Below are positions 1,388-40,447 of a stretch of DNA of 45,000 nt, piece after piece (within the stretch, counting starts at the first letter, position 1; every line of letters starts with the position of its first letter). Below the pieces are notes generated by a model that worked only from the letters and a program-made list of their open reading frames with translations, searched no databases and had not been told where the DNA came from. The position numbers were made by a program, and so were the translations under genes. Location: contig JAIBAP010000012.1 in NCBI GenBank assembly GCA_019695115.1, forward strand, positions 1-45,000, written 5' to 3'. The DNA comes from Caldilineales bacterium. GTDB lineage: Bacteria; Chloroflexota; Anaerolineae; J102.

Positions 1388-1621
1388 ATGACCACCGAAA
1401 CCACGAATATCGCTGACCAGGCGCTGCTGGAAACAATCGATCCTGTACAGGCCACGGGTAGTGGCCCGGATGCAGGTGAGCCGGGCAACGATCCGAATGA
1501 ACCACCCTTCCGCCCTGTCCACCTCCCGGAGGGTATTCTAGCTGGATATGATTTCTCCCCAGATGCATTGAAAGAAGCGCGGCGCATCATGTGGCCGGAT
1601 CGATCTGAGAAGTTTGGCTGA
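1388..1621 (+). CDS. hypothetical small protein (77 aa)
   Basis: A 77-residue acidic, probably soluble protein that I do not recognise. The N-terminal half is rich in Thr, Pro, Gly and Asp and looks disordered; the C-terminal third (LKEARRIMWPDR region) could form a helix. Support for a real gene is positional: a promoter with a 17-base spacer lies at 1318-1346, CAGGAACGG sits before the ATG, and the stop is 11 bases before the start of the M20 hydrolase, whose GAGG ribosome site overlaps this stop. It could be a small partner or regulator of the hydrolase, which is inference only. Confidence 0.55.
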   Translation: MTTETTNIADQALLETIDPVQATGSGPDAGEPGNDPNEPPFRPVHLPEGILAGYDFSPDALKEARRIMWPDRSEKFG

Positions 1622-1632
1622 GGCATCGCTCC

Positions 1633-2784
1633 TTGCCCCTCACCCTCCCCCACCTCACCACCTTCCTCCAGGCCCTCGTCCGCGCCCGCTCGCTTTCGGG
1701 TGAGGAAGGGGCCGTCGTCCAGCTTGCCGCCGCCGAGATGCGGTTGCTGGGCTTCGACGACGTCCACATCGACGCCAACGGCAGCCTGATCGGCCTGATC
1801 CAGGGGGCGGGGCCAGGGCCAACCCTGCTGCTCGATGCGCATTGCGACACCGTCGGCGTGGCCCCCGGCGCGCCCTGGCGTCAGGAGCCGTTTGGAGCCG
1901 AGATCGTGGAGGATCGCATGTATGGGCGGGGGACGAGCGACATGAAGGGCGCTTTGGCGGCGATGGTGCATGCGGCGGCGGCGGTCGATCGGGCGAGCCT
2001 GGCCGGGCGGGTGGCCGTCAGCGCCACGGTCATGGAAGAGGTGATGGAGGGTGTCAGCCTGCGGGCGGTGATGGACTACGTCCAGCCAGACTTCGTCGTC
2101 ATCGGCGAGGCCACCGAACTCAACCTCAACCACGGCGGCCGGGGCCGGGCCGAAGTCCAGATCGAAGCCATCGGCAAGCCCGCCCATTCCTCCACCCCCC
2201 ACCTGGGCGAGAACGCCGTCCTCAAGATGCTGCCGGCCATCCAGACCATCGACCGCCTGCCCCTGCCCAGCGACCCCCTGCTCGGCCCCGGCCTCATGGC
2301 CCTCACCGACATCATCTCCGAGCCATACCCTGGCCATTCCGTCGTCCCCAGCCGCTGCCGCGTGACCTACGACCGCCGCCTCCTGACCGATGAAAGCATC
2401 GAGAGCGTCGTGACTGGGCTGAAGGCGCTGCCCGAGATGGCAAACATCCACGTGCGCATCGCCGACGGCGAGCACACCACCTACACCGGCGCCACCCTCA
2501 GCGGCCCCAAATTCTTCCCTGCCTGGAAACTTGAACCCGAACACCCCCTCGTTCAGGCATCCCTGGCGGGGCTGCGCGCGGCCGGCCTGAACCCCGGCCT
2601 TTCGGCCTATCGCTTCTGCACCAACGCCGCCTTCAGCGCCGGCTGGGCGGGCGTCCCCACCGTCGGCTTCGGCCCCTCGGCCGAGGGCCAGGCCCACGTG
2701 GTGGACGAATACATCGAACTCGATCAACTCTTCGCCGCCGCCCGCGGCTACCTCGGCATCATCCAGGCTGTGCTCGGTCGATGA
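1633..2784 (+). CDS. M20 family metallohydrolase, YgeY-like
   Basis: A 383-residue zinc aminoacylase/carboxypeptidase-fold enzyme of the ArgE/DapE/YgeY group, which hydrolyses amide bonds of small molecules in the cytoplasm. The family residues are visible: His70 and Asp72 in DAHCDTV, bridging Asp103 in GRGTSDMKG, the Glu135-Glu136 pair, Glu159 in IGEAT, and the last metal His in QAHVVDEY near residue 355. A dimerisation insert occupies about residues 170-290. The start is a TTG with GAGG nine bases upstream. YgeY is known from purine-degradation and selenium-dependent molybdenum hydroxylase clusters; the SsnA-, YgfM- and XdhD-like genes elsewhere in this window fit that grouping. ArgE- or DapE-type function in amino acid synthesis is the main alternative. 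Confidence 0.85.
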
Positions 2785-4742: not shown

Positions 4743-4771
4743 TTGACGGTTGGCAGGCGGCGTGCTAGGAT
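4743..4771 (+). promoter_or_regulatory. putative sigma-70-type promoter for hcn-type operon
   Basis: TTGACG at 4743-4748 and TAGGAT at 4766-4771 with a 17-base spacer. The start of transcription would be near 4778, giving a leader of about 73 bases to the GTG at 4851. Confidence 0.5.
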
Positions 4772-4850
4772 TTCGGCGCTACCGACTTCCACAACCCTTG
4801 CAGCGCCGGCTGGACATGGCGCGCCGCTCCCGTCCTCCCAGGGCTGTCCC

Positions 4851-5156
4851 GTGCGGATCACTCGCTCCGATGCTTTCCTTCCCCCGCTCGAACGGGGAGA
4901 GCCGATCACCGTCAGCATCGACGGGCGGTCTGTGAGCGCCTTCGCTGGCGAATCGGTGGCGGCGGTGCTGCTGGCCGAGGGCATCCGCAGCTTCCGGCAG
5001 ACGGCGAAGAGGGGCGAGGGGCGGGGCCTGTTCTGCGGCATTGGCATTTGCTACGATTGCCTGGTGACGGTGGACGGAACCGCCAACCTGCGCGCCTGCC
5101 TGACGCCGGTGACGCCCGGCTGCGCTATCGAAACAGGGGCGAGGGGGCAGGCATGA
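4851..5156 (+). CDS. (2Fe-2S)-binding small subunit of HcnABC/sarcosine oxidase-type dehydrogenase
   Basis: A 101-residue ferredoxin-like protein of the HcnA / OoxA / sarcosine oxidase alpha N-terminal type. The [2Fe-2S] ligands are intact: Cys62, Cys67 and Cys70 in FCGIGICYDC, then Cys near 82 in RAC. It starts with a strand motif around ITVSIDGRSVSAFAGE. The reading frame is open further left, but that part is promoter DNA; the GTG at 4851 has AGGG nine bases upstream and the right family length. It overlaps the next gene by ATGA, so the two subunits are translated together. It would shuttle electrons from the FAD subunit (encoded far away at 11912-13066) in a membrane-linked amine dehydrogenase. 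Confidence 0.82.
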   Translation: MRITRSDAFLPPLERGEPITVSIDGRSVSAFAGESVAAVLLAEGIRSFRQTAKRGEGRGLFCGIGICYDCLVTVDGTANLRACLTPVTPGCAIETGARGQA

Positions 5157-6629: not shown

Positions 6630-7655
6630 ATGACCCCCAAACACCGCACCCTGTTCGTCACCGACCGCGGCCAGCAACAGCAGCAATGGGCGCTGGAAGG
6701 CGCGCCGCCCGACCTGGACATTGTCATGCGCCGCCGCCCGCCCAAAGAGGAGATCATCGCCCTGCTGCCCGAGATGGAGTTCTTCATCTCCGAGCGCTCG
6801 GGCGTGATCGACGCCGATATGATCGCCGCCGGCAGCCAGCTCCGGCTGATCCAGCGCCTGGGCGTGCAGACCTGGGACATCGACCTGGAAGCGGCGCGGG
6901 CCGCCGGCATCCCCGTCTGTTATCTGCCGGTGCAGACCTGCGAGCTGGTGGCCGAGCACGTGGTCATGCAGATCCTGTGCCTGGTCAAGCGCGTGCGCGA
7001 GTTGATGCAGGTCGCCGAGGATGGCGATGATTGGGGTCAGCCCCCCCGCCGCTGCGACGAGGATCATTTTGCCTACAACTGGTCGCACCGCCAGAACATC
7101 GGCGGGCTGGCCGGCAAGAGGGTGGGCATCCTCGGCTTCGGCGAGATCGGCGTCGAACTGGCCCGCCGTCTGCAGCCGTTCGGGTGTACGGTGCTCTATC
7201 AGAAACGCAAGCGCTACCCCGCCCCTGTCGAGGCCGAATTCGGCATCCGCTTTGCCACGCAAGCTGAGATCGCCGCGGCCGCCGATGTGATCGTCGCTCT
7301 GCTGCCGCTCGGCCCTGAAACCGAGCAAAGTCTGAGCACGGCCTTCTTCGCCTCGCTCAAGCCGGGGGCGCTGTTCATCCAATCCGGCGGCAGCGCCACG
7401 GTGGATGAGGAGGCCTTGGCCGCGGCCCTGCGCTCGGGGCAGTTGGGCGGGGCGGCGGTGGATGGCTTCACCTGGGAGCCGGTGCAGCCGCACAATCCGC
7501 TGCTGGCGCTGGCCCGCGACCCCATGTGCAACCTAGTGCTCACGCCCCACGTGGCCGCCGGCGCCATCACCATCACCGGCGCCCTGCGCCAGGGCGATTA
7601 CGTCAACATCGTCGCCGCCCTGAAAGGCGAACCCCTGCGCCATCGTCTGGCATGA
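6630..7655 (+). CDS. D-2-hydroxyacid dehydrogenase homologue lacking catalytic Arg (copy 1)
   Basis: A 341-residue protein of the NAD-dependent D-isomer hydroxyacid dehydrogenase family, with a split substrate domain and the nucleotide motif GILGFGEIG near residues 164-172. The Glu of WEP and the His of TPHVAAG (about residue 307) are present. The Arg that normally binds the substrate carboxylate, in the N-x-x-R-G motif before VDE, is Gly254 here (QSGGSATVDE). It shares with the copy at 30762 an ISER segment and an unusual DEDxFAYNWS insertion, so the two form one subfamily. It follows the amine dehydrogenase subunits by 40 bases. Function in the pathway is probable, but a simple 2-hydroxyacid substrate is doubtful. 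Confidence 0.8.
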   Translation: MTPKHRTLFVTDRGQQQQQWALEGAPPDLDIVMRRRPPKEEIIALLPEMEFFISERSGVIDADMIAAGSQLRLIQRLGVQTWDIDLEAARAAGIPVCYLPVQTCELVAEHVVMQILCLVKRVRELMQVAEDGDDWGQPPRRCDEDHFAYNWSHRQNIGGLAGKRVGILGFGEIGVELARRLQPFGCTVLYQKRKRYPAPVEAEFGIRFATQAEIAAAADVIVALLPLGPETEQSLSTAFFASLKPGALFIQSGGSATVDEEALAAALRSGQLGGAAVDGFTWEPVQPHNPLLALARDPMCNLVLTPHVAAGAITITGALRQGDYVNIVAALKGEPLRHRLA

Positions 7656-7786: not shown

Positions 7787-8374
7787 CTACCCCTGCCCAG
7801 GGCGCACGACCGCCGAGATGTACTCGGCCGGCCCACCGTCGATGGCACGGATGCTTTCCATAAAGCGGTTCTCGAAGTAGATCGAATCCCCCACCTCGAG
7901 CTGGTAGGTCTGGCCAGCAACCTGAATCTCGATTTCACCTGCCATGACCACGATGCACTCTTCGGTTGGCTCAGCCAGCGGCTGCTGCATGATGTTCCCG
8001 GCCTCGGGCGGCACCCGCACCAGGAAGAGCACCATCTTGCGGGTGAGTTGCGGCGTCAGGATCTCATACGTGACATTGCTGTCCGGGAAGAACATGTGCC
8101 GCCGCCGATCTCTCGTCACCACCAGATCGCTATCCGAGGAATCGGCCAGCAGTCGGTGCAGCGGCGTGCGCAGCGCCAGCGCAATCCGCCGCGCCGAAGC
8201 CAGCGTGGGATTGGCCAGACCGCGCTCCAGGTTGCTGAGGAAGGTGGTGCTGAGGTCGGTCATCTCGGCCAGTTCGCGCAGGCTGAGGCCCATTTCGGCC
8301 CGACGCTCTTTGATCCGCTCGCCAAACCTGATATTTTCCGCGGAGGGTTCGTCCATGATGTCCAACTTTATCAT
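7787..8374 (-). CDS. XRE-family regulator with C-terminal cupin domain (copy 1)
   Basis: A 195-residue transcription regulator. Residues about 17-70 are a classic XRE/lambda Cro helix-turn-helix (LSLRELAEMTDLSTTFLSNL is the turn and recognition helix), and about 110-190 form a cupin beta-barrel with TEECIVVMAGEIEI and GDSIYF. This class usually binds a small metabolite in the cupin and represses catabolic genes. ATG 8374 or ATG 8356 could be the start; neither has a strong ribosome site. It diverges from the isomerase gene with only about 40 bases between the starts, so it may control that operon and itself. A paralogue lies at 10342-10935. Confidence 0.88.
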   Translation of the reverse strand: MIKLDIMDEPSAENIRFGERIKERRAEMGLSLRELAEMTDLSTTFLSNLERGLANPTLASARRIALALRTPLHRLLADSSDSDLVVTRDRRRHMFFPDSNVTYEILTPQLTRKMVLFLVRVPPEAGNIMQQPLAEPTEECIVVMAGEIEIQVAGQTYQLEVGDSIYFENRFMESIRAIDGGPAEYISAVVRPGQG

Positions 8375-8412
8375 GCCGCTGGCCGCTTGTCATCTTCGCT
8401 GGGGGTGATGTG

Positions 8413-9240
8413 ATGGAATACACCGGTTATCTCGATTTTTGGTTTCGCGACCGGCCCATCGTCGCACGGGTCGAGCCGATGGTCGGGCTGGGGTTCCGGC
8501 GCCTGGATGTGTGGTATTGGCGCGGCCAGCCGATGGCCGACCTGGCCGCCGAATGCCGGCGGCTGGGCGCCGTGCTCAATTCGGCCTTCGACGACGAGAT
8601 GGGTTCGCTGGTCGATCCGGGCGACAACGAACTGACTTACCGCTCCTGGGCCGAGAGCCTGGAGATGGCCGTCCGTTTCGGCGTGCAGCACCTGTTTCTC
8701 TTCTCCAACCAGGTCGATCTGATCGACGGCAAGACCTGGACCCGACGGCTTTCCGCCAACTTCACGCCCGCCCAGCAATACGCCAACGCCCTCCGCCAGA
8801 CCGAGCGCATCCTCAAGCTGGTGGAGCAGACGCCCGTGCAGGTGTGGGTGGAGGCGCTGAACGAGTTCCACATCCAGGGCGGCATCCTGGTGCACAACCA
8901 CGACCTGGCCGCCGATTGGGTGCGGCGCTTCCAGCACCCGCAATTGCGCATGGTCTTCGACTGCTATCACCAGCAGCGCGACTCCGGCAATCTGATCTGG
9001 GGGCTGGAGGCCTACGCCGGGCTGTACGACGCCGTGCACATCGCCGATGTCCCCACCCGCCAGGAGCCGGGCACCGGCGAGATCAACTTCGCCAACATCC
9101 GGCGCAAGCTGGGCAAGTTGGGTTACAATGGCTTCGTCGGTCTGGAATTCTACCCCTCCACCACCGAAGCCGAGGCGCTGGCGAAAGTCAGGGCGGTTTT
9201 TCCTCTGGAATCTCCTCCAGAAGACCCTAAAGGTCTTTGA
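8413..9240 (+). CDS. hydroxypyruvate isomerase-like TIM-barrel protein
   Basis: A 275-residue sugar-phosphate isomerase/epimerase (AP endonuclease 2) fold protein. The catalytic Glu residues are in VWVEALN and in VGLEFYPS, and the [18 protein letters not shown] segment is very close to the Hyi pattern. Hyi interconverts hydroxypyruvate and tartronate semialdehyde; related enzymes act on other short 2-oxo sugars. The ATG at 8413 is preceded by GGGGGTG; a GTG one codon earlier is possible. It leads an operon with an aldolase and DUF2277. With the aldolase it could process a C3 or larger carbon side chain released from the island's substrate (inference). Confidence 0.78.
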
Positions 9241-10937: not shown

Positions 10938-11915
10938 TCAACTCCCCCCGAAGAACGAGCGCCGGAGCACCTGGCGGTTGATCTGCCCGCCGACGAAGCT
11001 GCGACCGCTCTGCAAGCTGTTGATGATCACCCTGGCGGGAGAATCGATCAGGTCGGGCACGGCAAACCAGTTGCGACCGAAATGGTCGAAAATCTGGGCA
11101 AAGGGCAGGCCCCAGAACTCGCCGGCGTTGACATCGAAGCAGAGCCGGGCGAGCACCGGGGCAATGGCCTCGTCGGGCGCATCGGCATAGAGGACGGTGG
11201 TGGCGCCGTAAAACAGACAGTCGTTCACCCGGCCCATGGCCTCGCCCTCCGTGGCCGCCAGCGGGGCGACAGGGGCGACGCCGAAGCCGTGGCGGACGCT
11301 GTGGATGTCGAAGCCGTGCAGGAAGAGCTTCACCATCACCTGCTCGACCGTGCGCGAGGCCACCTGGATGGCGCCGACCAGACAGGCGGTGGGAGCGAAG
11401 ACGACATAGACCCGGTCGGGCGACACCTGGCAGGCGTCGGCCACGAAGCGGCACAGCTCGTCGTTGGGGATGCGCTGCGTCTGCAACTGCACCACCACCT
11501 TGTCGGCGCCGCGGTCGCTGTAACCGCTGCCCGACCAACGGTCGGCCAGCGCCGCCGCCCGCGCCGGCCCCGACCCGATCTCGGCATACTCGCCCTGGCC
11601 CAACTCCCAGCATCCCGCTTGCGAGGCCACCACCGCGATCACCGGCTGATCGACCCAGACCTGGATCGTGGGCAGCACGAAGGGATCGAGATCGAAGACG
11701 CCGTAATCGGCCTTGCCCAGCCCGCCAAAACCGGCCTCCACGAACACCTGGCCGGCCTTCCAACTGCCGGGACAGGTCAGGCCCATATCCACCAGCATGG
11801 CGCCGCAATCGGCGCGCCAGGCTTTGATCTGCAACTCGTCGGCGCGGGCGATGGCGTCATCGATCATGGCCACGGCGGCCCGGTTGACGCTGTAGGTTTG
11901 CATGTCGAAGGTCAT
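10938..11915 (-). CDS. methenyltetrahydromethanopterin cyclohydrolase (Mch) homologue 1
   Basis: A 325-residue protein aligning end to end with Mch, the enzyme that hydrolyses methenyl-H4MPT to formyl-H4MPT. Seen features: SVNRAAVAMIDDAI at the start, CPGSWKAGQVFVEAGFGGL, GSGPARA at about 115-121, FAPTACLVGAIQVASRTVEQ with Arg188 and Glu191 (the pair matching catalytic Arg183/Glu186 of Archaeoglobus Mch), GFGVAPVAP, GRVNDCLFYGATT and a C-terminal RRSFFGGS. ATG 11915 overlaps the stop of the FAD oxidoreductase gene (ATGA), so translation is coupled to it; ATG 11903 is an alternative. No other H4MPT pathway genes are nearby, so I infer a different cyclic amidine substrate. A diverged second copy is at 18154-19122. 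Confidence 0.85.
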   Translation of the reverse strand: MTFDMQTYSVNRAAVAMIDDAIARADELQIKAWRADCGAMLVDMGLTCPGSWKAGQVFVEAGFGGLGKADYGVFDLDPFVLPTIQVWVDQPVIAVVASQAGCWELGQGEYAEIGSGPARAAALADRWSGSGYSDRGADKVVVQLQTQRIPNDELCRFVADACQVSPDRVYVVFAPTACLVGAIQVASRTVEQVMVKLFLHGFDIHSVRHGFGVAPVAPLAATEGEAMGRVNDCLFYGATTVLYADAPDEAIAPVLARLCFDVNAGEFWGLPFAQIFDHFGRNWFAVPDLIDSPARVIINSLQSGRSFVGGQINRQVLRRSFFGGS

Positions 11916-13066
11916 AGTGGCCTTTGCGGAGTGTGAAAACGGGCGGGGTCGAAGGCGTCGAGCGCCAGCCGCGGGGCGCGGCCCAGGATCATGCCGGCGA
12001 TCAGCTCGGACAGGATGGGCGTGGTGGTGATGGTCAGGTGAAAACAGGCGGCCACGAACAAGTTGTCGAAACCGGGCATCCAGCCGACGGCCGGCTGAGC
12101 GTCGGGCAGGAAGGGGCTTTGCCCTGTCCAGGCCCGCAGCACCCGCACATGGGCCAGCTTGGGCGCCAGACGCAGCAATTCGGCGGCCATGCCGGGCGGC
12201 CCCCAGAGGCTGGTGTGATGGCGCATGCGCTCGCCCATCTCTACCGATTCGGAAATATAGAGCGTGCCCGGCTGCATCTGCAAGACGCCCAACGACACTG
12301 CCCGCGGGGCATGGTGGATCGTCTCGTAGAAATCGGCCATGCCCAGGTGGTGCCGCAACACCGGCGGCAGCGGCTCGGAGACCATGGCCTCGGCGTTGGT
12401 CGAACGCACGGGCAGATGGGCGCCGGCCAGGGCCAACACCTGGCCCGACCAGGCGCCTGCCGCCACCAGCACCGCCCCGGCCGCGTACCGGCCCTGCGGC
12501 GTCCGCACCGCCGTCAGCCGCTGGCCGGCGCGCTCCAGGCCGATCACCGGCTCGTGCGCGGCCAGGGTGGCGCCATGCCGCCGGGCGGCGCGGGCAAAGG
12601 CCCAGCAGTACTTCTGCGGATGCAGATGGCCCTCCAGACACCAGGCCCCGCCCAGATAGTCATCCAGACAGAGCTCGGGTTCGGCCTGGCGCAGGGCGGC
12701 CGGGTCGAGCATGTCGGCGGGCAGGCCCAGCGATTTGAGCTGCGCCACCTGCGCCACCCATTCCTGCCAATGCTCCGGGCGGCGAATGAGCATGATATTC
12801 CCCAGCCGCCGCCAGTCGAAGCCGCAGTCCAGTTCGTCTTCCAATTGTTCCAGGCGGGCCAGACCCAGCATCACCAGCTGCAGATGCAGCCCCGGATGCC
12901 CCTCGGCCACCTGCGCCCGCCCGCCGCAGGCGCCCGATGAACCGCTGCCCAGGCCCCCGGCCTCCAACAGCAGCACGCTGGCGCCCTCGCCAGCCAGATG
13001 ATAGGCAATGGCATTGCCGATGAACCCCCCACCGACGATGACCACATCGTGTGATCGCTCAGCCAT
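11912..13066 (-). CDS. DadA/HcnC-type FAD-dependent oxidoreductase
   Basis: A 384-residue D-amino acid/glycine oxidase-fold flavoprotein. GGGFIGNAIAYHLA at residues 12-25 is the FAD-binding motif, the LLEAGGLGSGSSGA stretch follows, and RAWTGQSPFLPDAQPAVG plus the C-terminal ACFHLTITTTPILSELIA are typical of HcnC/SoxB-type subunits. It probably completes the heterotrimeric dehydrogenase whose other two subunits are at 4851-6589, though those are in a separate operon. It removes hydrogen from an amine C-N bond. Two bases separate it from the upstream ABC ATPase gene and it overlaps the Mch homologue by ATGA. Confidence 0.85.
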   Translation of the reverse strand: MAERSHDVVIVGGGFIGNAIAYHLAGEGASVLLLEAGGLGSGSSGACGGRAQVAEGHPGLHLQLVMLGLARLEQLEDELDCGFDWRRLGNIMLIRRPEHWQEWVAQVAQLKSLGLPADMLDPAALRQAEPELCLDDYLGGAWCLEGHLHPQKYCWAFARAARRHGATLAAHEPVIGLERAGQRLTAVRTPQGRYAAGAVLVAAGAWSGQVLALAGAHLPVRSTNAEAMVSEPLPPVLRHHLGMADFYETIHHAPRAVSLGVLQMQPGTLYISESVEMGERMRHHTSLWGPPGMAAELLRLAPKLAHVRVLRAWTGQSPFLPDAQPAVGWMPGFDNLFVAACFHLTITTTPILSELIAGMILGRAPRLALDAFDPARFHTPQRPL

Positions 13067-14637: not shown

Positions 14638-15560
14638 GCCCGCTCCTCGTAGGGGACGCCCAGGGCCTTGGGCTGCACCGATTGCCCGCGCAGCAGGATC
14701 ATGGCCACGAGGGTGGCGAGATAGGGCAGGATCTGCAAAAACTGATAGGCGACCTGCAAATTCTGGACTTGCAGCCGCAACTGCAAGGCATAGGTGAAGC
14801 CAAACAGCAGACAGGCCAGGAAGACGCCAAGCGGTCGCCAGCGCCCGAAGACGACGATGGCCAGGGCGATGAACCCGCGCCCGGCGACCATGTTCTCGAC
14901 GAAGACATTGGCCCAGGCGATGGTGAGATAGGCGCCGCCGACGCCGGCCAGCATGGCGCCGAAAATGGCGGCCCCGTAGCGCAGCCGGAGGACGGAGATG
15001 CCGGCGGTGGCCACGGCCCGCGGGTGTTCTCCGGCCGCGCGGATGGCCAGCCCCAGCATCGTCTTGTTCAGGACCAGGGCGGCGACGAAGGGGAGCACGA
15101 GCGCGGCGTAGACCAGCCAGTTGTGCTGGAACAAAATCGGCCCCAGCAAGGGGATGTCGCCCAGCACGGGGATGCGGGTGGCGGTCAGCGGCTGGATGCG
15201 GGCCGCGGGCACGGCGCCGAAGGCCACGCGGTAGACGAAACTGGAGAGGCCGAGGCCGATCAAATTGATCGCCGTCCCCGTCACAATCTGATTGGCGCGC
15301 AGGCTGACGGTGACGAGGGCAAAGATGGCCCCAAAGATACCTGCCGTCAGCGCCGCCGCCGCCACCGCCAGCGCCACCGATTGCGTGCCATACACGACCA
15401 GGTAGGCCGTGACCGCGCCGATCAGCATGATCCCCTCCAGCCCGATGTTGACCAGGCCGGCGCGTTCGTTGTAGGTCTCGCCGACCGAGGTGTAGATCAG
15501 CGGCGCGGCCATGCGCAGGGTGGTCTGCAAAAGCGATTGCAGGACGAGCAGGATGTCCAT
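14634..15560 (-). CDS. BMP/nucleoside-type ABC importer permease 2 (YufQ-like)
   Basis: A 308-residue inner-membrane permease of the BPD_transp_2 class, with eight to ten hydrophobic segments. NERAGLVNIGLEGIMLIGA near residues 30-48 is the family hallmark, and AIRAAGEHPRAVATAGISV is the cytoplasmic coupling loop that touches the ATPase. The ATG at 15560 is used; the longer frame upstream is a shadow of the first permease. It starts two bases after the first permease ends and overlaps the ATPase start. Confidence 0.9.
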   Translation of the reverse strand: MDILLVLQSLLQTTLRMAAPLIYTSVGETYNERAGLVNIGLEGIMLIGAVTAYLVVYGTQSVALAVAAAALTAGIFGAIFALVTVSLRANQIVTGTAINLIGLGLSSFVYRVAFGAVPAARIQPLTATRIPVLGDIPLLGPILFQHNWLVYAALVLPFVAALVLNKTMLGLAIRAAGEHPRAVATAGISVLRLRYGAAIFGAMLAGVGGAYLTIAWANVFVENMVAGRGFIALAIVVFGRWRPLGVFLACLLFGFTYALQLRLQVQNLQVAYQFLQILPYLATLVAMILLRGQSVQPKALGVPYEERA

Positions 15561-15562
15561 GG

Positions 15563-17764: not shown

Positions 17765-17932
17765 GTTTCTTCCTCCTGAAACGGTTGGAAAGGCGGAACG
17801 ACATTGGTCAGGGATACTGATGCGCTTCTTTGGTGTTGCAGGCAACCTCCTTCTTGTAGCCAGGCCGTGGCCCAAGGATGGCGTCTCGAAAGCGATTTAC
17901 TTCGACAACCTGTCGGCATGAAACCGCGCCCC

Positions 17933-20110: not shown

Positions 20111-21084
<974 letters not shown>

Positions 21085-29191: not shown

Positions 29192-29974
29192 ATGTCAAAC
29201 TACCAACGCTTCTCCGATCAGGTCGTCATCGTTACCGGCGCCTCGCAGGGCATCGGCCAGGCGACGGCCGTGGCTTTTGCCCGCGAGGGCGCGCACGTCA
29301 TCGTCAATTACTATGCCAGCGAGGAGAGGGCGCGGGAGACGCTCGCCGCCATCGAGCAGGAAGGCGGGCGGGGGACGCTGGTGCGGGCGGATGTCGGCGA
29401 CCTGGCCGGCTGCGAGCAACTGGTCGAGGCCGCCGAAGCGGCCGGGCCGGTGAAGGTTCTGGTCAACAACGCCGCCGGTTTCAGCCGCGCCCATTTCCTG
29501 GATGTCCCCATCGAGGAATTCGACCGCGTGTGGCGCATCAATGTACGCGGGGTGTACTACCTCAGCCAACTGGCGGCCCGGCGCATGGCCGAGCGCGGGC
29601 AGGGCAGCATCATCCATGTCAGTTCCATCCTCGCCCGGCTGGCCGTGCCCACCCGCTCGGCCTACTGCGCCAGCAAAGGCGCGGTCGAGGCCCTCACCCG
29701 GGCCATGGCCCTCGACCTGGCCCCGCACGGCATCCGGGTCAACGCCGTCTCGCCCGGCCTGATCGAGACCCAGGCCATGCTGGCCGGTTTCCCCAGCCAG
29801 GAAATGCTCGATGAAGTGCGCCGCCACATCCCCTCCCGGCGCTTTGGCGCCCCCGAGGAGATGGCCGCTGCCATCCTCTTCCTTGCCTCCGACCAGGCTT
29901 CCTACATCAACGGCATCGTCTTGCCGGTAGACAGCGCCCTCGGCGCCCGCGAAGCCGGGCCGGTGCGAAAGTGA
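29192..29974 (+). CDS. short-chain dehydrogenase/reductase (SDR 2)
   Basis: A 260-residue classical SDR with TGASQGIG near residues 15-22, NNAAG, catalytic Ser in IHVSSILAR and Tyr-Lys in YCASK, and NAVSPGLIET. FabG-like in layout. NADP preference is suggested by the long beta2 loop after VNYYASEE. It lies between the alcohol/aldehyde dehydrogenase pair and the cyclodeaminase-type gene, in the same direction. Likely oxidises or reduces a pathway intermediate; FabG function in fatty acid synthesis is unlikely given the context. Confidence 0.88.
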   Translation: MSNYQRFSDQVVIVTGASQGIGQATAVAFAREGAHVIVNYYASEERARETLAAIEQEGGRGTLVRADVGDLAGCEQLVEAAEAAGPVKVLVNNAAGFSRAHFLDVPIEEFDRVWRINVRGVYYLSQLAARRMAERGQGSIIHVSSILARLAVPTRSAYCASKGAVEALTRAMALDLAPHGIRVNAVSPGLIETQAMLAGFPSQEMLDEVRRHIPSRRFGAPEEMAAAILFLASDQASYINGIVLPVDSALGAREAGPVRK

Positions 29975-31797: not shown

Positions 31798-33153
31798 ATG
31801 TCCACCCTCCTGATCGAAAACGGCGCCATCCTCACCCTCGATGACGCCCAACACCTCCTCAACCCCGGCTACCTCCTGATCGAAGACGACCGCATTGCAG
31901 CGATGGGCCAGGGCGACGCGCCCGCCAGCCTGCGCCGGGCCGACGCCATCATCGACGCCCGCCTCATGGCCGTCATGCCCGGCATGGTCAACGCCCACAC
32001 CCACCTCTTCCAGACCTTCATCCGCGGCCTGGCCGACGACAAACCCCTGCTGGAATGGTTGAAAGCCGCCATCTGGCCGGTGGCGCAGGCCCTGACCGCC
32101 GAAGAAGCCTATGTGGCGGCGCTGGTGGGGCTGGTGGAAAACCTCCGGGGTGGGGCCACCGCCGTCATCGACCACCAATACATCCACACCGAACCGGGCA
32201 ACGATGACGGCGTCTGCCAGGCGGCCGAGGAAGTGGGCATCCGCTTCCTGCTCGCGCGCGGCTGGGCCGACGTGGACTACCACCCCACCCTGATGGAGAC
32301 GCCCGACCGCATCGTGGCCGAGACCGAGCGCCTGCGCCAGACCTGGCACGGCCGCGACGGCGGACGCATTCGCGTCGAGTTCGGACCGCTCATCCCCTGG
32401 GGCTGCACCGACGAGACCATGCTGCGCACCCAACGCATTTCGGATGGTTGGCAGGCGGGCACGCACATCCACGTGGCCGAGACACAGACCGAGGTGGCCA
32501 TCAACCTGGACAAGCGGGGCAATCGCCACATCGAATGGCTGGCCGAACTGGGCGTTCTGGGGCCAGGGATGCAGCTGGTACACAGTGTTTGGCTCAGCGA
32601 CCACGAAATCGACCTCATCGCCCAGTCTGGCGCGGTCGTCGTGCACTGCCCGGTCAGCAACATGTACCTGGCCTCAGGCGTGGCCCGCGTGCCTGAAATG
32701 CGCTCCCGCGGCATCACCATCGCCCTGGCCTCGGACGGCCCTGGCAGCAACAACAGCCAGGACATGCTGGAAACCCTCAAGACCACCGCCCTGCTGCACA
32801 AAGTGAGCACTCTCAACGCCCAGATCCTGCTGCCCGAAGATGTGCTATGGATGGCCTGCCGGGGCGGCGCCGTCGCCTTCGGCCAACCCCACCTGATCGG
32901 CTCGCTCGAAGTCGGCAAAAAGGCCGACGTCGTCCTCATCGACCTCGACACCCCCCTGGCCATGCCCGTCCACCGCCTCCCCTCGGCCCTGGTCTACAAT
33001 GCCTGCGCTCGCGACACCGACACCGTCATCGTCGATGGCCGGGTGCTCATGCGCCACAAGCAGATCACCGTCCTCGACGAAAAAGCCCTCCTCGCCCGCG
33101 CCCGCCGCGCCTGCCAGAATCTATTCGAGCGCGCCGGCGTACGCGTGGCATAG
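31798..33153 (+). CDS. SsnA/TrzN-type amidohydrolase (copy 2)
   Basis: A 451-residue amidohydrolase, the canonical-looking partner of copy 1. His67 and His69 in NAHTHLFQTF, His225 and Glu228 in HVAET, His262 in VHSVWLS and Asp313 in ASDGPGSNN. The HVAETQTE motif is typical of TrzN/AtzB and SsnA-type or 8-oxoguanine deaminase enzymes, which deaminate nitrogen heterocycles. Beta-sandwich ends frame the barrel. ATG 31798 is used. SsnA is a regular part of selenium-dependent molybdenum hydroxylase clusters, matching the XdhD-like gene downstream. Gene order hydroxyacid dehydrogenase, amidohydrolase, pteridine reductase-type SDR suggests one operon. Confidence 0.88.
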   Translation: MSTLLIENGAILTLDDAQHLLNPGYLLIEDDRIAAMGQGDAPASLRRADAIIDARLMAVMPGMVNAHTHLFQTFIRGLADDKPLLEWLKAAIWPVAQALTAEEAYVAALVGLVENLRGGATAVIDHQYIHTEPGNDDGVCQAAEEVGIRFLLARGWADVDYHPTLMETPDRIVAETERLRQTWHGRDGGRIRVEFGPLIPWGCTDETMLRTQRISDGWQAGTHIHVAETQTEVAINLDKRGNRHIEWLAELGVLGPGMQLVHSVWLSDHEIDLIAQSGAVVVHCPVSNMYLASGVARVPEMRSRGITIALASDGPGSNNSQDMLETLKTTALLHKVSTLNAQILLPEDVLWMACRGGAVAFGQPHLIGSLEVGKKADVVLIDLDTPLAMPVHRLPSALVYNACARDTDTVIVDGRVLMRHKQITVLDEKALLARARRACQNLFERAGVRVA

Positions 33154-35094: not shown

Positions 35095-35123
35095 TTGACG
35101 CTCCGGCCTTTCCCGGCTATGAT
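35095..35123 (+). promoter_or_regulatory. putative sigma-70-type promoter of FAD-subunit gene
   Basis: TTGACG at 35095-35100 and TATGAT at 35118-35123 with a 17-base spacer. Transcription would start near 35130, leaving a very short leader that still contains AAAGGAG at 35133-35139 before the ATG at 35146. Confidence 0.6.
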
Positions 35124-35145
35124 GCCCCCCTCAAAGGAGTTTGCC

Positions 35146-35886
35146 ATGACCCTGATCCAAGCCTATCACCGCCCCCACACCCTGGACGAAGCCCTGCAAT
35201 TGCTGGCCAGGCCGGGACTGAAAACGGCCGTTCTGGCCGGCGGCGCCTATCTCAACGCCCATGCCGATGGCGTAGACGAAGTCGTCGACCTGCAATCGCT
35301 GCCGCTGACAGGCGCGGCCCGCGAGGGCGACCAACTCACCCTGGGCGCCATGACAACCATCCAGACGGTCGTGGATGCCGCCGGCGCGCCGGCCCTCCTG
35401 CGCGAGATGGCGCACCGCGAGGGGCCGAACACCTTCCGCAACCAGGGCACGGTGGGCGGGGCCATCGTCTGTGCCGACCCCGAAAGCGAATTCGTGGCGG
35501 CGCTGCTGGTGTTGGAGGCCACGCTGACCATCGTCACCCCGGCCGGCGACCGCACCCTGCCGCTGGCCGCATTCCTGGCCGATGCGCCCGCCGCCCTCGA
35601 TGGCGGCATCCTCACCTGGGTGGCGCTGGCAACGGGTGGCGTGACCGCCTCCGAGCGTGTGGCCCGCACCCCGGCCGACAAGCCCATCGTGGCAGCCGTG
35701 GCCCGGAAGACGCCGGATGGCCGGGTCTTGCTGGCGCTGTGCGGGGTGGCCGCCACCCCCATCCTCGTCGCCCCCGACCAGCTTTCTGCGCTCGGCCCGC
35801 CCGCCGACTTCCGCGGCAGCAGCGAATACCGGCGAGAGATGGCGATACTGCTGGCCGGCCGAGTCCTGAGTCGCCTGGATTCGTAG
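35146..35886 (+). CDS. molybdenum hydroxylase FAD-binding subunit (CoxM/YgfM-like)
   Basis: A 246-residue FAD subunit of a xanthine dehydrogenase-family enzyme. [15 protein letters not shown] binds the flavin pyrophosphate, [20 protein letters not shown] is the hallmark second FAD motif. Its length and lack of a long C-terminal part resemble YgfM from the XdhD/SsnA cluster rather than full CoxM. The ATG with AAAGGAG is chosen over an open frame from 35095. Its natural partner, the Mo subunit at 37430, is separated by a methyltransferase and a toxin-antitoxin pair. It passes electrons from the Mo centre to NAD or another acceptor. Confidence 0.87.
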
Positions 35887-37429: not shown

Positions 37430-40400
37430 ATGCAAATCAACCTCACCATCAACGGCGTTCCCACGACCCTCTCTTGTCTGCCCCACGAAAATCTGCGGCG
37501 CGTCTTGCGGCGCGAGGGCTATTTCAGCGTCCGCTATGGCTCCGACACCGGCGAGACCGGCGCCGCCGCCATCCTGCTCGATGGCAAACTGGTCAGCGCC
37601 GATGTGGTGCTGGCCGCTCAGACCGATGGTCATGTCATCGAGACCGTCGAAGGTTTGTCGCAGGGTCTCAAGCTCCACCCCATCCAGGAAGCCTTCATGC
37701 GCACGGGCGCCATCCAGTCGGGCTACTCGACTCCGGCCATGGTGCTGGCGGCCAAAGCCCTGCTGGCAACGAACCCGAACCCGACCGAAGCCGAGGTGCG
37801 CGACGCCCTTTCCGGCATCCTCGATCGCGAGACGGGCTATGTCAAGCCGGTGCAGGCCGTTCTCGAGGCGGCGGCGATCATGCGTGGGGAGGAGCCAACC
37901 CTGATCGAGCCGAATGTGCTGACGCCGATCGTGCTGCCGGGCGGGGGGGATGACTGGGACACAGGCGGAGAGGGAGGGACGAGGGGAGATCAAACGCCGG
38001 AGTTTCCCGGCGGTGGGGTGGCGCTCGACGCCCGCCGTCGCACCCTGCCCAAATTCGTCGTTGCCCCGCAGGCCCAGGAACTGAAGGTCGTGGGCAAGCC
38101 GGAAGTCAAGGTCGACGCCCTCAAGCTTGTCAAGGGCAACCCGGCCTTCGTCGATGACATCGAATTGCGCGGGCTGCTGCACGCCAGACTGCTCACCAGC
38201 CCGCACGCCCATGCCCGCATCCTCGATATCGACGACAGCGAGGCCCGCGCCCTGCCCGGCGTCCATGCCGTCATCCACTACAAAAACGTGCCCCGCGTAC
38301 GCTATGCCTCCGGCGGCCAGTCCTATCCCAACCCCAAGCCCTGGGATCAGGTGAGTTTTGACAACAAAGTGCGGCATGTGGGCGACCGGGTGGCGGCAGT
38401 GGCAGCCGAAACGCCGGAGATCGCCGCGGAAGCAATCAAACGCATCCGCGTGCGGTATGAAGTGTTGCCGGCGGTGTTCGATGAAAACGAGGCGATCAAG
38501 GAAGGCGCGCCGGTCATCCACGATGAGCCGGATATGGAGGGCGCTTACGACGCCGGGCGCAACCTCACGCACCACATCCACGCCCAGGTGGGCAATGTCG
38601 AAGCCAGCTTTGCCCAGGCCGACTACATCTTCGAGCACAACTATCGCGTCCATCAGGTGCAGCAAGTGCCCATCGAGCCGCACATCGTCATCGGTTATTG
38701 GGATGCCGACGAACGTCTGGTGCTGCGCAGCTCGACTCAGGTGCCGTTCCACGCCCGGCGCATGGTGGCCCCCCTGCTGGGGCTGCCGGTCAAGCGCATC
38801 CGCGTGATCAAACCCCGCATCGGCGGCGGCTTTGGCGCCAAACAGGAGATGTTGATCGAGGACATCGTTGGCCATCTCGTCATTGCCAGCGGCAAGCCGG
38901 TGAAACTGGAATTGAACCGGGCCGAGGAATTCATGTCCTCGCGCTCGCGCCATCCCCAGAGCATCCACTACAAGACCGGCGTCAACCGCGATGGCAAGCT
39001 GGTGGCCATGAAGATGACGGTGATCGGCAACACTGGCGCCTACGCCACCCACGCCCTCACCGTGCAAACCGTAACCGGGATGCGCGGCCTGAGCACCTAC
39101 AACTGCCCCAACAAGGAATTCGATTGCCTGGTGGCCTACACGAACATACCGATTCCGGGCGCCTACCGCGGTTATGGCGCGCCCCAGGCGCTGTTCGCCC
39201 TCGAAAGCCACATGGAGGAAATCGCCGAGGCGCTGGGGCTGGATGTGATCGAGTTCAAGCGACTGAACTGGGTGAAGGTGGGCGACCCACTCGACATCGC
39301 CCCGCAGCTGGGCGAAGGCGAGGCCGACGTCAGCAGCCTACCCATCGTCCAGACCAGCGGCCTGAGCGAGTGCATCGCCCAGGGGATGCGGGCCATCGGT
39401 TGGGAGCGTCGCGACGACCCGGCCTGGAAAGCGCCCGCCGACCGGCCCCACATCCGTCGCGGCATCGGCATGGCCGTGTGTATGCACGGCTCCGCCATCC
39501 CCGGCCTGGACATGGGCGCGGCCAGCATCAAGATCAACGACGACGGCAGCTTCAACGTTCTGGTTGGCGCCACCGATCTGGGCACCGGCTCTGACACCGT
39601 GCTGGCGCAGATCGCCGCCGAAGTGTTGGGCGTGTCGCTGGAAGACATCATCATTTACTCCTCCGACACCGACTTCACACCCTTCGACACCGGCGCCTAC
39701 GCTTCCAGCACCACCTATATCTCGGGCACGGCGGTGAAGCGCGCCGCCGAAGAACTGCGCCAACAAATCAAAGAGCGGGTGGGGCTGATGTTGCGTCTGC
39801 CCGACTGGAGCAATGTAGTCTTGCGCGACCGCCTGGCCTGGGCCCCTGATGGCCGCTACGTCACCCTGCAACAGGTGGCGCTGCATTCGCTGCATCAGGA
39901 CCAGCAGCGGCAGCTGATGGCCACTGCCTCGTATGTCTCGCCCGATTCGCCGCCCCCGTTCGGCGGGCAGTTTGCCGAGGTCGAGGTGGACATCGAAACC
40001 GGCCAGGTGACGGTGACGAAGCTGGCGATGGCTGTCGATTGCGGCGTAGCCATCAACCCGATCACCGCCAGCGGCCAGGTGGAGGGTGGGATGACGCAGG
40101 CCTTGGGCTACGCCCACTGCGAAGAAATGGTCTACGACGAGAGCGGTCGCATGGTCAACCCCGCCATCGGCCCCTACAAGATCTACCGCGCCGACGAGAT
40201 GCCCGAGATCGATGTCACCCTGGTGCAGACGCTGGAACCCACCGGGCCGTTCGGGGCCAAAGCCGTGGCCGAAATCCCCAAGGATGGCATTGCCCCGGCC
40301 ATCGCCAACGCCATCTACAACGCTACCTCCGGTAGCGCCGCTCCCTCCGGTAGCGCCGCCGCCGGAGGGAGCGCCGCCACGGGCTTACGTCTCCGTCGTC

Positions 40401-40447
40401 TTCCCTTCACCCCAGAGCGGGTATGGCGGGCGTTACATCAGCGATAG
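37430..40447 (+). CDS. XdhD-like molybdenum hydroxylase with cysteine-free Fe-S domain
   Basis: A 1005-residue xanthine dehydrogenase-family protein. The N-terminal ferredoxin-like half (residues 1-155) aligns with two [2Fe-2S] domains but all eight ligand positions are changed: Ser38, Thr43, Ala46, Ala57, Ser97, Ser100, Asp132 and Glu134. So it cannot hold those clusters. The Mo part (about 210-1005) is intact: VGDRVAAVAAETPE, RIGGGFGAKQ, GAYRGYGAPQ, TDLGTGSDT and the catalytic Glu in KAVAEIPKDG. From memory E. coli XdhD (YgfN) also has degenerate Fe-S domains, so this is the best family match, typically with YgfM and SsnA. Electron flow must go to another protein. Near residues 966-984 an in-frame repeat insertion (SGSAAPSGSAAAGGSAA) interrupts the C-terminal end. 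GGAG precedes the ATG. Confidence 0.88.
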   Translation: MQINLTINGVPTTLSCLPHENLRRVLRREGYFSVRYGSDTGETGAAAILLDGKLVSADVVLAAQTDGHVIETVEGLSQGLKLHPIQEAFMRTGAIQSGYSTPAMVLAAKALLATNPNPTEAEVRDALSGILDRETGYVKPVQAVLEAAAIMRGEEPTLIEPNVLTPIVLPGGGDDWDTGGEGGTRGDQTPEFPGGGVALDARRRTLPKFVVAPQAQELKVVGKPEVKVDALKLVKGNPAFVDDIELRGLLHARLLTSPHAHARILDIDDSEARALPGVHAVIHYKNVPRVRYASGGQSYPNPKPWDQVSFDNKVRHVGDRVAAVAAETPEIAAEAIKRIRVRYEVLPAVFDENEAIKEGAPVIHDEPDMEGAYDAGRNLTHHIHAQVGNVEASFAQADYIFEHNYRVHQVQQVPIEPHIVIGYWDADERLVLRSSTQVPFHARRMVAPLLGLPVKRIRVIKPRIGGGFGAKQEMLIEDIVGHLVIASGKPVKLELNRAEEFMSSRSRHPQSIHYKTGVNRDGKLVAMKMTVIGNTGAYATHALTVQTVTGMRGLSTYNCPNKEFDCLVAYTNIPIPGAYRGYGAPQALFALESHMEEIAEALGLDVIEFKRLNWVKVGDPLDIAPQLGEGEADVSSLPIVQTSGLSECIAQGMRAIGWERRDDPAWKAPADRPHIRRGIGMAVCMHGSAIPGLDMGAASIKINDDGSFNVLVGATDLGTGSDTVLAQIAAEVLGVSLEDIIIYSSDTDFTPFDTGAYASSTTYISGTAVKRAAEELRQQIKERVGLMLRLPDWSNVVLRDRLAWAPDGRYVTLQQVALHSLHQDQQRQLMATASYVSPDSPPPFGGQFAEVEVDIETGQVTVTKLAMAVDCGVAINPITASGQVEGGMTQALGYAHCEEMVYDESGRMVNPAIGPYKIYRADEMPEIDVTLVQTLEPTGPFGAKAVAEIPKDGIAPAIANAIYNATSGSAAPSGSAAAGGSAATGLRLRRLPFTPERVWRALHQR
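40321..40380. repeat. nested palindromic insertion in the XdhD-like gene
   Basis: CGCTACC-TCC-GGTAGCG at 40321-40337 and CGCTCCCTCCGG / CCGGAGGGAGCG at 40339-40350 and 40362-40373 form two stem-loops; TCCGGTAGCGCCG also occurs twice. It keeps the frame and adds about 17 Ser/Gly/Ala residues just before the final LRRLPFTPERVW. Confidence 0.7.

What the first reader, a model, noticed from the sequence alone, without database searches (positions are those of the whole stretch)
1388..40447. Island combining C1-pterin enzyme homologues with a YgeY/SsnA/YgfM/XdhD module
Seen: two Mch homologues, one FTCD_C-type protein, one Mer-like LLM protein and one pteridine-reductase-type SDR, in one 39-kb island with a YgeY-like hydrolase, two SsnA-type amidohydrolases, an XdhD-like and a YgfM-like subunit, an HcnABC-type dehydrogenase, a nucleoside-type importer and a lipoyl dehydrogenase. 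Known: YgeY, SsnA, YgfM and XdhD belong to purine/selenium-dependent hydroxylase clusters; Mch and FTCD_C open or form cyclic amidines on pterin cofactors. Inference: a heterocycle (pteridine-, folate- or purine-like) is taken up and its ring opened by repurposed cyclohydrolases. I know of no described pathway with this set.
Basis: partly seen in the sequence, partly recalled or inferred. Interest (0 to 1): 0.88.

Follow-up and report, generated by a model that had tools for sequence, protein, structure and literature searches.

The report
Mch-like enzymes in catabolic gene islands
Two enzymes of a family known from methane-making microbes sit, in a bacterium that seems to lack the usual pathway for them, inside a large catabolic gene island whose core recurs in several bacterial phyla, which suggests an undescribed way of taking up and breaking open a purine- or pterin-like ring compound.

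Summary
The 39-kb island of a Chloroflexota genome has two genuine Mch (PF02289) genes, a Mer-like LLM, a YgeY-type hydrolase, XdhD- and YgfM-like subunits, an HcnABC-type dehydrogenase, a BMP/PnrA-type ABC importer, an FTCD_C-like protein and a PTR-like SDR. The "lipoyl dehydrogenase" is a TPP-dependent E1ab plus lipoyl domain plus E2. The "SsnA" proteins fall below the SsnA cut-off. The genome shows no Ftr and no beta-RFAP synthase, so these Mch are not the usual C1 enzymes. On a tree, canonical Mch form one clade; Mch2 lies in another (Chloroflexota, Actinomycetota) that is mostly beside E1/E2 and SDR genes, as are two further clades (Bacillota; Bacillota with a spirochaete). A congener keeps all blocks, on three contigs; most of the family has no Mch. 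Two genomes from the family of a Clostridial carrier repeat much of the set. Best reading: import and reductive/hydrolytic catabolism of a purine- or pterin-like heterocycle, laid out like the known reductive urate pathway, in which Mch paralogues hydrolyse a cyclic N-CH=N ring and E1/E2 oxidises the resulting skeleton to an acyl-CoA. Ring-opening and substrate are inferred, not shown. I found no description in the papers searched.

The parts
1633..2784 (+). YgeY-type M20 hydrolase (block A); frame open from 1609, start codon unsure
   Evidence: NCBIfam PRK13004 396 bits, cut-off 321; TIGR03526 267, cut-off 321.5; 65% to G001 C121
3389..4414 (+). Mer-like LLM (F420-type) oxidoreductase (block A)
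   Evidence: 89% to G001 C121, 84% L064, 76% G225
4749..5156 (+). HcnA-like [2Fe-2S] protein (block B)
   Evidence: Fer2_4 93 bits
5153..6589 (+). HcnB-like FAD subunit (Pyr_redox_2 + BFD/SO_alpha_A3) (block B)
6630..7655 (+). D-2-hydroxyacid dehydrogenase 1 (block B)
7790..8374 (-). XRE-cupin regulator (block B)
   Evidence: HTH_3 + Cupin_2; relatives in the G001, G365, L064, L066, L076 and L081 loci
8410..9240 (+). AP_endonuc_2-type sugar isomerase (block B)
   Evidence: 90% to G001, 70% to L082
9233..10057 (+). DeoC/LacD-type aldolase (block B)
   Evidence: 88% to G001
10938..11903 (-). Mch1, non-canonical Mch homologue (block B); ATG at 11903
   Evidence: PF02289 294 bits; start read; R183/E186 kept
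11912..13066 (-). HcnC-like DAO FAD dehydrogenase (block B)
13069..14637 (-). ABC importer ATPase, two ABC domains (block B)
14634..15569 (-). ABC importer permease (block B)
   Evidence: BPD_transp_2; nearest NCBIfam is a B6 ABC permease, below cut-off
15563..16657 (-). ABC importer permease (block B)
   Evidence: BPD_transp_2
16730..17875 (-). BMP/PnrA-type solute-binding protein (block B)
   Evidence: Bmp 101 bits
18154..19122 (+). Mch2, non-canonical Mch homologue of the E1/E2-linked clade; 10 bp before E1alpha
19133..20110 (+). E1 alpha of a 2-oxo-acid-dehydrogenase-type complex (block A)
20107..21084 (+). E1 beta (block A)
   Evidence: PRK09212 344 bits, cut-off 321; 89% to G001 C121
21174..21413 (+). 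stand-alone lipoyl domain (block A)
   Evidence: Biotin_lipoyl 66 bits
21421..22116 (+). E2 catalytic domain (block A)
   Evidence: 2-oxoacid_dh 213 bits
22130..23575 (+). SsnA/DadD-like amidohydrolase 1 (block A)
   Evidence: 183 bits against the SsnA cut-off 455; 75% to G001 C121, 58% to L082
24901..25725 (+). SDR1 (block A)
   Evidence: 77% to G001 C121
26401..27567 (+). iron-containing alcohol dehydrogenase (block A)
   Evidence: 68% to G001 C121; 40% to G603
27564..29063 (+). aldehyde dehydrogenase (block A)
   Evidence: 72% to G001 C121; 38% to G603
29192..29974 (+). SDR2 (block A), nearest of the three window SDRs to an SDR in the L064, L066 and L067 Mch loci
   Evidence: 55-66% identity; 81% to G001 C121
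30023..30658 (+). FTCD_C-like protein (block C)
   Evidence: 40 bits, cut-off 24.5; 59% to G001 C29
30762..31781 (+). D-2-hydroxyacid dehydrogenase 2 (block C)
31804..33153 (+). SsnA/DadD-like amidohydrolase 2 (block C)
   Evidence: 240 bits against the SsnA cut-off 455; 82% to G001 C29
33181..33930 (+). pteridine-reductase-like SDR3 (block C)
   Evidence: 77% to G001 C29; 62% to L082
33927..34940 (+). D-2-hydroxyacid dehydrogenase 3 (block C)
35095..35886 (+). YgfM-like FAD subunit (block C)
   Evidence: 58% to G001 C29
37430..40447 (+). XdhD-like Mo/Fe-S hydroxylase subunit (block C)
   Evidence: 80% to G001 C29, 78% to L064

Best explanation
The island encodes import and catabolism of a bicyclic nitrogen heterocycle of the purine/pterin kind, probably carrying a sugar or polyol part. 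Inferred steps: the BMP-type ABC importer takes it up; HcnABC and the aldolase/isomerase/2-hydroxyacid-dehydrogenase set deal with an amine and a polyol part; XdhD-YgfM changes the oxidation state of the ring; the Mer-like LLM (F420), or in Clostridia other reductases (RibD_C-like, dihydroorotate-dehydrogenase-like), removes aromaticity; SsnA/DadD-like amidohydrolases deaminate or open the pyrimidine part; the Mch paralogues hydrolyse a non-aromatic N-CH=N (cyclic amidine) ring to an N-formyl amine, the chemistry that true Mch does on methenyl-H4MPT; YgeY removes an N-acyl or ureido group; SDR, alcohol and aldehyde dehydrogenases and the E1-lipoyl-E2 complex oxidise the remaining carbon skeleton to an acyl-CoA. 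I favour a reduced purine, because purines have an N-CH=N ring carbon and pterins do not unless a C1 bridge is attached. Shown: families, conservation, absence of two C1-pathway markers, clade structure, retained residues. Inferred: every reaction and the substrate.
For: Only 2 Mch, no Ftr, no beta-RFAP synthase in the own genome. Canonical Mch (14 rows) lie on one side of a 100/100 branch; Mch2 groups with E1/E2-linked Mch, 99/98, 13 rows. R183 in 31 of 31 and E186 in 30 of 31 non-canonical rows; the E186 column is where solved 4gvr (Q) differs from 4gvq (E). An E1 or E2 gene within 7 kb of 22 of 31 non-canonical and 0 of 11 canonical Mch copies (18 of 25 and 0 of 10 sources); an SDR near 21 of 31 and 1 of 11; SsnA-like near 6 of 31 and 0 of 11; XdhD near 2 of 31 and 0 of 11. 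All three blocks kept in G001. G603 repeats importer + HcnB/DAO + XdhD + SsnA-like + 3 Mch + E1/E2/E3 + LplA; G582 has a YgeY-like M20, a DHO_dh-family protein and two SsnA-like genes beside Mch, E1/E2 and XdhD. L071 has a Xan_ur_permease in the locus. The published reductive urate pathway uses XdhD, SsnA and YgeY, and its authors note a putative F420/luciferase-type reductase in Chloroflexota clusters (PMC12507026, passages and discussion read).
Against: No substrate or activity is known. The amidohydrolases and XdhD are below the SsnA and XdhD model cut-offs. The genome has no diaminopropionate ammonia-lyase over cut-off, and no hydantoinase- or carbamoyltransferase-type gene was recognised in the window, so the urate pathway's ending is not there. 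In G001 the blocks are apart, so A, B and C may serve different substrates; Mch1 and its clade (L079, L081, G001, with G225 outside) have no E1/E2 within 7 kb. Within the own family (20 genomes with the own one) only G000 and G001 have Mch, so the trait is patchy. Mer-like LLM, Mch, FTCD_C-like and PTR-like SDR all come from pterin-enzyme families, and in some relatives Ftr-type genes lie beside SsnA-like and importer genes, which fits a C1-carrier reading as well. No E3 or LplA was seen in the window.
Confidence: 0.45

Rival explanations
1. Pterin catabolism: the substrate is a tetrahydropterin-like compound (biopterin, neopterin, folate or methanopterin remnant); Mch, Mer-like LLM and PTR-like SDR were recruited because they already bind pterins, the amidohydrolases deaminate the 2-amino group, and E1/E2 cleaves the alpha-hydroxyketone side chain or C6-C7 unit.
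For: Several proteins belong to pterin-enzyme families; a RibD_C (pyrimidine-reductase-type) protein in L074, with a relative in L071; E1 resembles pyruvate/2-oxo-acid E1.
Against: A plain pterin has no N-CH=N carbon for Mch chemistry; SDR3 and the LLM are below the pteridine-reductase and Mer cut-offs; the four core SDRs scanned (L065, L066, L071, L072) have no pteridine-reductase model among the 25 best matches shown.
Confidence: 0.25
2. Alternative C1-carrier pathway: the Mch paralogues and Mer-like LLM act on a C1-bearing tetrahydropterin (H4F or a modified cofactor) and oxidise or reduce a C1 unit released by the catabolic enzymes; the FTCD_C-like protein would feed in formimino groups.
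For: R183/E186 kept; LLM directly abuts Mch in G225; Ftr with SsnA-like, DAO and importer genes in G408; in G582 genes resembling neighbours of canonical Mch/Ftr, and an Ftr-type gene, follow the Mch/E1/E2 cluster; Ftr in 4 of 26 genomes tested: G408, G410, G416 and the canonical control G025.
Against: No Ftr or beta-RFAP synthase in the own genome; Ftr absent in 22 of 26 genomes tested; residue swaps against canonical Mch, E140 to Q in 18 of 18 and 4 of 4 rows of the two window clades compared, F105 to A, F280 to H or D (9 other non-canonical rows were not in that comparison); G416 has, besides its paralogue, a second Mch in a C1-type cluster with Ftr.
Confidence: 0.15
3. Composite of unrelated catabolic operons: an importer/opine-like block, a TPP-dehydrogenase block and a xanthine-dehydrogenase-like block lie side by side by chance in this genome.
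For: In G001 the blocks lie on three contigs; mobile-looking inserts break the window.
Against: Across-block links recur elsewhere: L064 joins XdhD-YgfM-LLM-YgeY with E1/E2-Mch-SDR, L082 and G603 join the importer type with Mch and E1/E2, and in the window Mch2 is 10 bp before E1alpha.
Confidence: 0.12

Closest known systems
Reductive uric acid degradation pathway of E. coli and C. difficile (XdhD-YgfM, YgfK/UacX, SsnA, HyuA, YgeW/UacY, YgeY, YgeX; PMC12507026)
   Same: XdhD/YgfM-like subunits, a YgeY-type hydrolase, SsnA-related amidohydrolases, a candidate F420-type LLM reductase (noted by its authors for Chloroflexota SsnA clusters)
   Different: SsnA-like and XdhD below model cut-offs; no YgeX over cut-off in the genome; adds two Mch, E1/E2, HcnABC, BMP importer, SDRs
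H4MPT-linked C1 pathways (Mch, Ftr, Fhc of methylotrophs; Mch and Mer of methanogens; roles recalled)
   Same: Mch family membership and R183/E186; a Mer-like LLM
   Different: no Ftr, no beta-RFAP synthase, separate Mch clades, catabolic neighbourhood
AcoABC / PDH-type 2-oxo-acid dehydrogenase complexes
   Same: E1alpha, E1beta, lipoyl domain, E2; E3-type flavoprotein and LplA in Clostridial relatives
   Different: 10 bp behind an Mch gene; E2 and lipoyl domain are split genes in the window
HcnABC / opine-oxidase-type amine dehydrogenases (name recalled)
   Same: 2Fe-2S, FAD/BFD and DAO subunits
   Different: lies around Mch1 and an importer; substrate unknown

Membership tests
Mch (PF02289) | match over curated cut-off, full length | tested here: met
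   294 and 295 bits against 25, profile 1-311; Mch2 also over TIGR03120; Mch1 not scanned there (one search failed)
Canonical C1 Mch | falls with the archaeal and C1-operon Mch on the tree | tested here: not met
   both lie outside a 100/100 group of 14 rows labelled canonical
H4MPT C1 pathway | Ftr and H4MPT biosynthesis in the genome | tested here: not met
   Ftr 0 of 1, TIGR00144 0 of 1; Fae, Fhc, MtdB not searched
Reductive urate pathway | SsnA over the TIGR03314 cut-off in the cluster | tested here: not met
   183 and 240 against 455.5 bits; the one SsnA over cut-off in G000 is on another contig, C65, where I saw no other urate-pathway gene except an LLM (gene names there read from sequence, not scanned)
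Reductive urate pathway | diaminopropionate ammonia-lyase YgeX | tested here: not met
   none over cut-off in G000; 2 of 14 genomes have one
Reductive urate pathway | YgeY hydrolase | tested here: inconclusive
   PRK13004 396 against 321 bits (over), TIGR03526 267 against 321.5 (under)
Reductive urate pathway | XdhD-YgfM over model cut-offs | tested here: not met
   704 of 1102 and 82 of 241.5 bits
Mer | match over the Mer equivalog cut-off | tested here: not met
   161 of 276 and 159 of 349 bits
2-oxo-acid dehydrogenase complex | E1, lipoyl-E2 and E3 | tested here: inconclusive
   E1alpha, E1beta, lipoyl, E2 present; no E3 recognised in the window; E3-type gene in L071, L072, L074, G603 (only L074 scanned)
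Cyclic-amidine hydrolase on a catabolic heterocycle | activity | not testable with these tools
   needs enzyme assay

The most novel reading that the evidence does not exclude
A widespread, undescribed pathway for a purine- or pterin-like heterocycle in which several paralogous clades of Mch serve as cyclic-amidine hydrolases that strip ring carbons as formyl groups, tied to a dedicated TPP-lipoyl complex; Mch would then be a general N-CH=N ring-opening fold from which, or to which, the methanogenic C1 enzyme evolved.
Probability: 0.3. Interest if true: 0.87.

Novelty: new variant of a known kind. Interest (0 to 1): 0.7.

Why it matters
Mch is commonly read as a marker of methanogenesis and H4MPT-linked C1 metabolism; here it marks something else, so annotations that infer C1 metabolism from Mch can be wrong. 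If the reading is right, it adds a reaction class to the Mch family and a heterocycle pathway in Chloroflexota, Actinomycetota and Bacillota (with one partial spirochaete locus) that can be tested with single enzymes.

Tried and rejected
Ordinary C1 metabolism: rejected as the main reading because Ftr and beta-RFAP synthase are absent from the own genome. Straight urate pathway: rejected because the SsnA and XdhD cut-offs are missed and YgeX is missing. A YgeX role for the PALP protein beside L073, L075 and L077 was dropped: the one scanned (L077) is TrpB, 584 against 392 bits. Thiamine, flavin and creatinine-type substrates were considered from memory only and not tested. The G000 C65 SsnA locus was read for a urate cluster and does not look like one (my reading of sequence starts, not scanned). 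Papers: six answered searches that could have shown a description listed none; a search for the Mch structure paper gave nothing useful. All cover only the held open-access library.

Limits of the tallies. The Mch rows were reached by similarity to window Mch1/Mch2 or by the PF02289 family, so they lean towards Mch2-like copies. L062 (= G368) and L080 (= G001) were dropped as duplicates; G365 (partial Mch at a contig end), G140 and the short G146 copy are not in the counts. A first tally gave 23 of 31 because the window Mch1 frame was taken too long; with the true start gives 22 of 31. Several rows sit on short contigs, so a missing neighbour there says little. In one search the E1/E2 and canonical labels were given by me beforehand from neighbourhoods and scores; Ftr near Mch was shown by search for G025 only among the labelled canonical rows. 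ORFs in loci were chosen by a greedy script, so some starts are wrong and labels there are BLAST clusters unless a scan is cited. Structure prediction and fold search were not used.


Full report
WHAT IS THERE. The window is bases 1-45000 of a 104-kb contig (C12) of a 6.0-Mb genome rated 100% complete, 2.3% contaminated. G+C is 65%. Genes were assigned with Pfam and NCBIfam. Two are Mch (PF02289), full length. Around them lie an HcnABC-type dehydrogenase, a BMP/PnrA-type ABC importer, a YgeY-type M20 hydrolase, a Mer-like LLM, E1alpha-E1beta-lipoyl-E2, two SsnA/DadD-like amidohydrolases, three SDRs, an Fe-ADH, an aldehyde dehydrogenase, three D-2-hydroxyacid dehydrogenases, a DeoC/LacD-type aldolase, an AP_endonuc_2 isomerase, a weak FTCD_C match, and YgfM- and XdhD-like subunits. 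At 40462 the island meets RecO.

The 'lipoyl dehydrogenase' is not an E3: it is E1/E2 with a split lipoyl domain. The amidohydrolases are not SsnA by NCBI's cut-off (183 and 240 against 455 bits). The XdhD, YgfM, Mer and pteridine-reductase labels are likewise family-level, below cut-off. The YgeY label holds for one of two models.

THE MCH COPIES ARE NOT C1 ENZYMES OF THE USUAL PATHWAY. The genome has these two Mch only, no Ftr and no beta-RFAP synthase; the control genomes that rang were archaea, as expected. On a tree of 45 Mch (IQ-TREE, LG+C20+F+G4 by PMSF, root for drawing only) the 14 rows labelled canonical, two of them archaeal sequences of solved structures, lie together (100/100). 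Mch2 lies in a 13-row group (99/98) of Chloroflexota and Actinomycetota rows, 12 of them labelled E1/E2-linked; a separate 100/100 group holds six Bacillota rows, and another 100/100 group two Bacillota rows and one spirochaete. How these groups branch from each other is not resolved (8 of 42 inner branches open). Mch1 lies with G001, L081 and L079 (100/99), G225 outside that (99/94). R183 is kept in 31 of 31 and E186 in 30 of 31 non-canonical rows (L082 has D), against 13 of 13 and 12 of 13 canonical rows. The E186 column is where the solved chains 4gvq and 4gvr differ, E to Q; that these residues are catalytic is recalled (the structure paper is not held). Canonical rows (13) differ from 18 rows of the E1/E2-linked kind and 4 of the Mch1 kind at 105 (F to A), 140 (E to Q), 225 and 280, so the pocket may have changed; where these residues sit was not examined, and 9 other non-canonical rows were not in that comparison.

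DISTRIBUTION. In the own family only G000 and G001 of 20 genomes have an Mch; a second congener, G002 (79% complete), has none. In the class 22 of 396 genomes match Mch2: 5 non-canonical (G000, G001, G225, G365, G368; G365 by identity only), 11 canonical on the tree, 6 not placed (G042, G050, G052, G092, G093, G140). So the trait is rare and patchy.

CONSERVATION IN THE CONGENER. In the G001 stretches read, the island genes have counterparts of 58-90% identity (not the first gene, the PDDEXK, methylase, DUF5615, RecO and CNNM genes), in three places: block B on C158 (HcnAB to Mch1, DAO, importer, Mch2), block A on C121 (YgeY, LLM, E1a, E1b, lipoyl, E2, SsnA-like 1, SDR1, Fe-ADH, ALDH, SDR2 in the window's order, behind an XRE-cupin paralogue) and block C on C29 (a second permease/permease/ATPase set, then FTCD_C, 2HADH2, SsnA-like 2, SDR3, 2HADH3, DeoC, YgfM, XdhD). 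In the window block B sits between LLM and E1a of block A. L064, another Chloroflexota, reads XdhD-YgfM-LLM-YgeY-XRE-E1a-E1b-lipoyl-E2-Mch-LLM-SDR, then transporter genes, an SsnA-like gene and a DAO. G365 and G368 hold parts of the same.

OTHER PHYLA. A scan of the species genomes returned 24 loci, one of them G001, labelled Chloroflexota (or Anaerolineales/Anaerolinea/Caldilineaceae), Acidimicrobiia and other Actinomycetota, Clostridia and other Bacillota, and a Spirochaetaceae (L076, E2 and Mch only, contig edge). Within 7 kb (duplicates L062 and L080 dropped) an E1 or E2 gene lies near 22 of 31 non-canonical copies and 0 of 11 canonical; an SDR near 21 of 31 and 1 of 11; SsnA-like near 6 of 31 and 0 of 11; XdhD near 2 of 31 and 0 of 11. 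Nine of 31 lack E1/E2 nearby (L075, L078, L079, L081, L084, G225, both G001 copies, window Mch1). Of 299 genomes drawn from the family of L071's genome, itself included, 3 have a match. One, G603, carries in about 44 kb: XdhD x2, SDRs, DeoC-like, HcnB x2, DAO x2, Mch x3, E1a/E1b x2, E2 x2, E3, SsnA-like, Fe-ADH and ALDH homologues (40 and 38% to the window's), an ABC-permease-BMP importer of the window's type, and LplA, but no LLM, YgeY or YgfM (labels by BLAST to loci already named). G582 has HcnA/HcnB, E1/E2, SsnA-like x2, Mch x2 (one very divergent, 102 bits to PF02289), ABC and permease genes, XdhD x2, a YgeY-like M20, a DHO_dh-family protein and another amidohydrolase. L071 has a Xan_ur_permease and, like L074, a RibD_C-type protein (L074 scanned).

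REDUCTANT SWAP. CofD over cut-off is in 7 of 14 genomes: of six with an LLM at the locus (G000, G001, G365, G399, G402, G225) five have it, G225 does not; G368 and G416 also have it; of six of the Clostridial set (G406, G408, G409, G412, G603, G582) none has it over cut-off. This fits an F420 step in Chloroflexota and Actinomycetota replaced by another reductase in Clostridia.

HOW IT PROBABLY WORKS. The published reductive urate pathway reduces urate with XdhD, removes aromaticity with YgfK or UacX, opens rings with SsnA and HyuA, and ends with YgeW/UacY, YgeY and YgeX (PMC12507026; outline, passages and discussion read). Its authors note a putative F420/luciferase-type dehydrogenase in Chloroflexota SsnA clusters. 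The island has the same logic but other ring-openers and another ending. A dearomatised purine without an 8-oxo group would hold a cyclic N-CH=N group, which an Mch-like enzyme could open, giving an N-formyl amine; amine dehydrogenases (HcnABC, DAO) could then give a 2-oxo acid for E1/E2. This chain is inference. Ftr beside SsnA-like and importer genes in G408, and an Ftr-type gene with Fhc-like genes behind the G582 cluster (the Fhc labels rest on likeness to genes beside canonical Mch, and the one scanned is only Amidohydro_3), would suit removal of a formyl group, but equally a C1-carrier reading.

LITERATURE. Searches for Mch with pterin or purine catabolism, with acetoin dehydrogenase, for urate genes and for pterin degradation listed no paper describing such a system; apart from PMC12507026 only listings and abstract starts were seen. 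Most subscription papers are not in the library.

VERDICT. A real, conserved and apparently undescribed catabolic system; chemistry and substrate open.

Noticed in passing
window 35891-37385: A DNA methylase and a DUF5615 gene lie between YgfM and XdhD, which are adjacent in G001, G365 and L064: an insertion in this genome.
   Followed up: partly
window 23606-24845: A PDDEXK_3 gene and a 93-bp tandem array of about 8 copies lie between SsnA-like 1 and SDR1, whose counterparts overlap in G001.
   Followed up: partly
window 3151-3377, 4425-4675, 7691-7785: Intergenic arrays built on 7-bp units (CACGCCT-like); the one at 4425-4675 lies at the border of blocks A and B.
   Followed up: no
window 25750-26291 (-): Two short open frames on the minus strand look like a RelE/ParE-type toxin and its antitoxin (read from the translation; not scanned).
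   Followed up: no
L072 1211-1945, L073 12045-12764, G603 43303-44013 (joined L119-L121): A 237-245-aa protein beside a divergent Mch clade; the L072 one matches only the N-terminal part of the Mch profile (31 bits), the others are its BLAST relatives: a second, shortened Mch-like family.
   Followed up: partly
L124 (G408 C191), L126 (G408 C10): Ftr-type genes in a Clostridial genome lie in clusters with SsnA-like amidohydrolase and with DAO or ABC-importer genes (the L124 Ftr scanned).
   Followed up: partly
L082 7933-9855 and 15939-17855; L052 (G225) 11196-13184 and 14157-15872: Paired aldehyde:ferredoxin oxidoreductase-type genes flank or follow Mch in two Chloroflexota loci, with an OTC-type carbamoyltransferase (one AOR and one OTC of L082 scanned).
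   Followed up: partly
L084 9995-10954: A named strain, Pseudoflavonifractor gallinarum DSM 107456, carries a lone divergent Mch after what looks like a GntR-type regulator (not scanned), with no E1/E2 within 7 kb.
   Followed up: no
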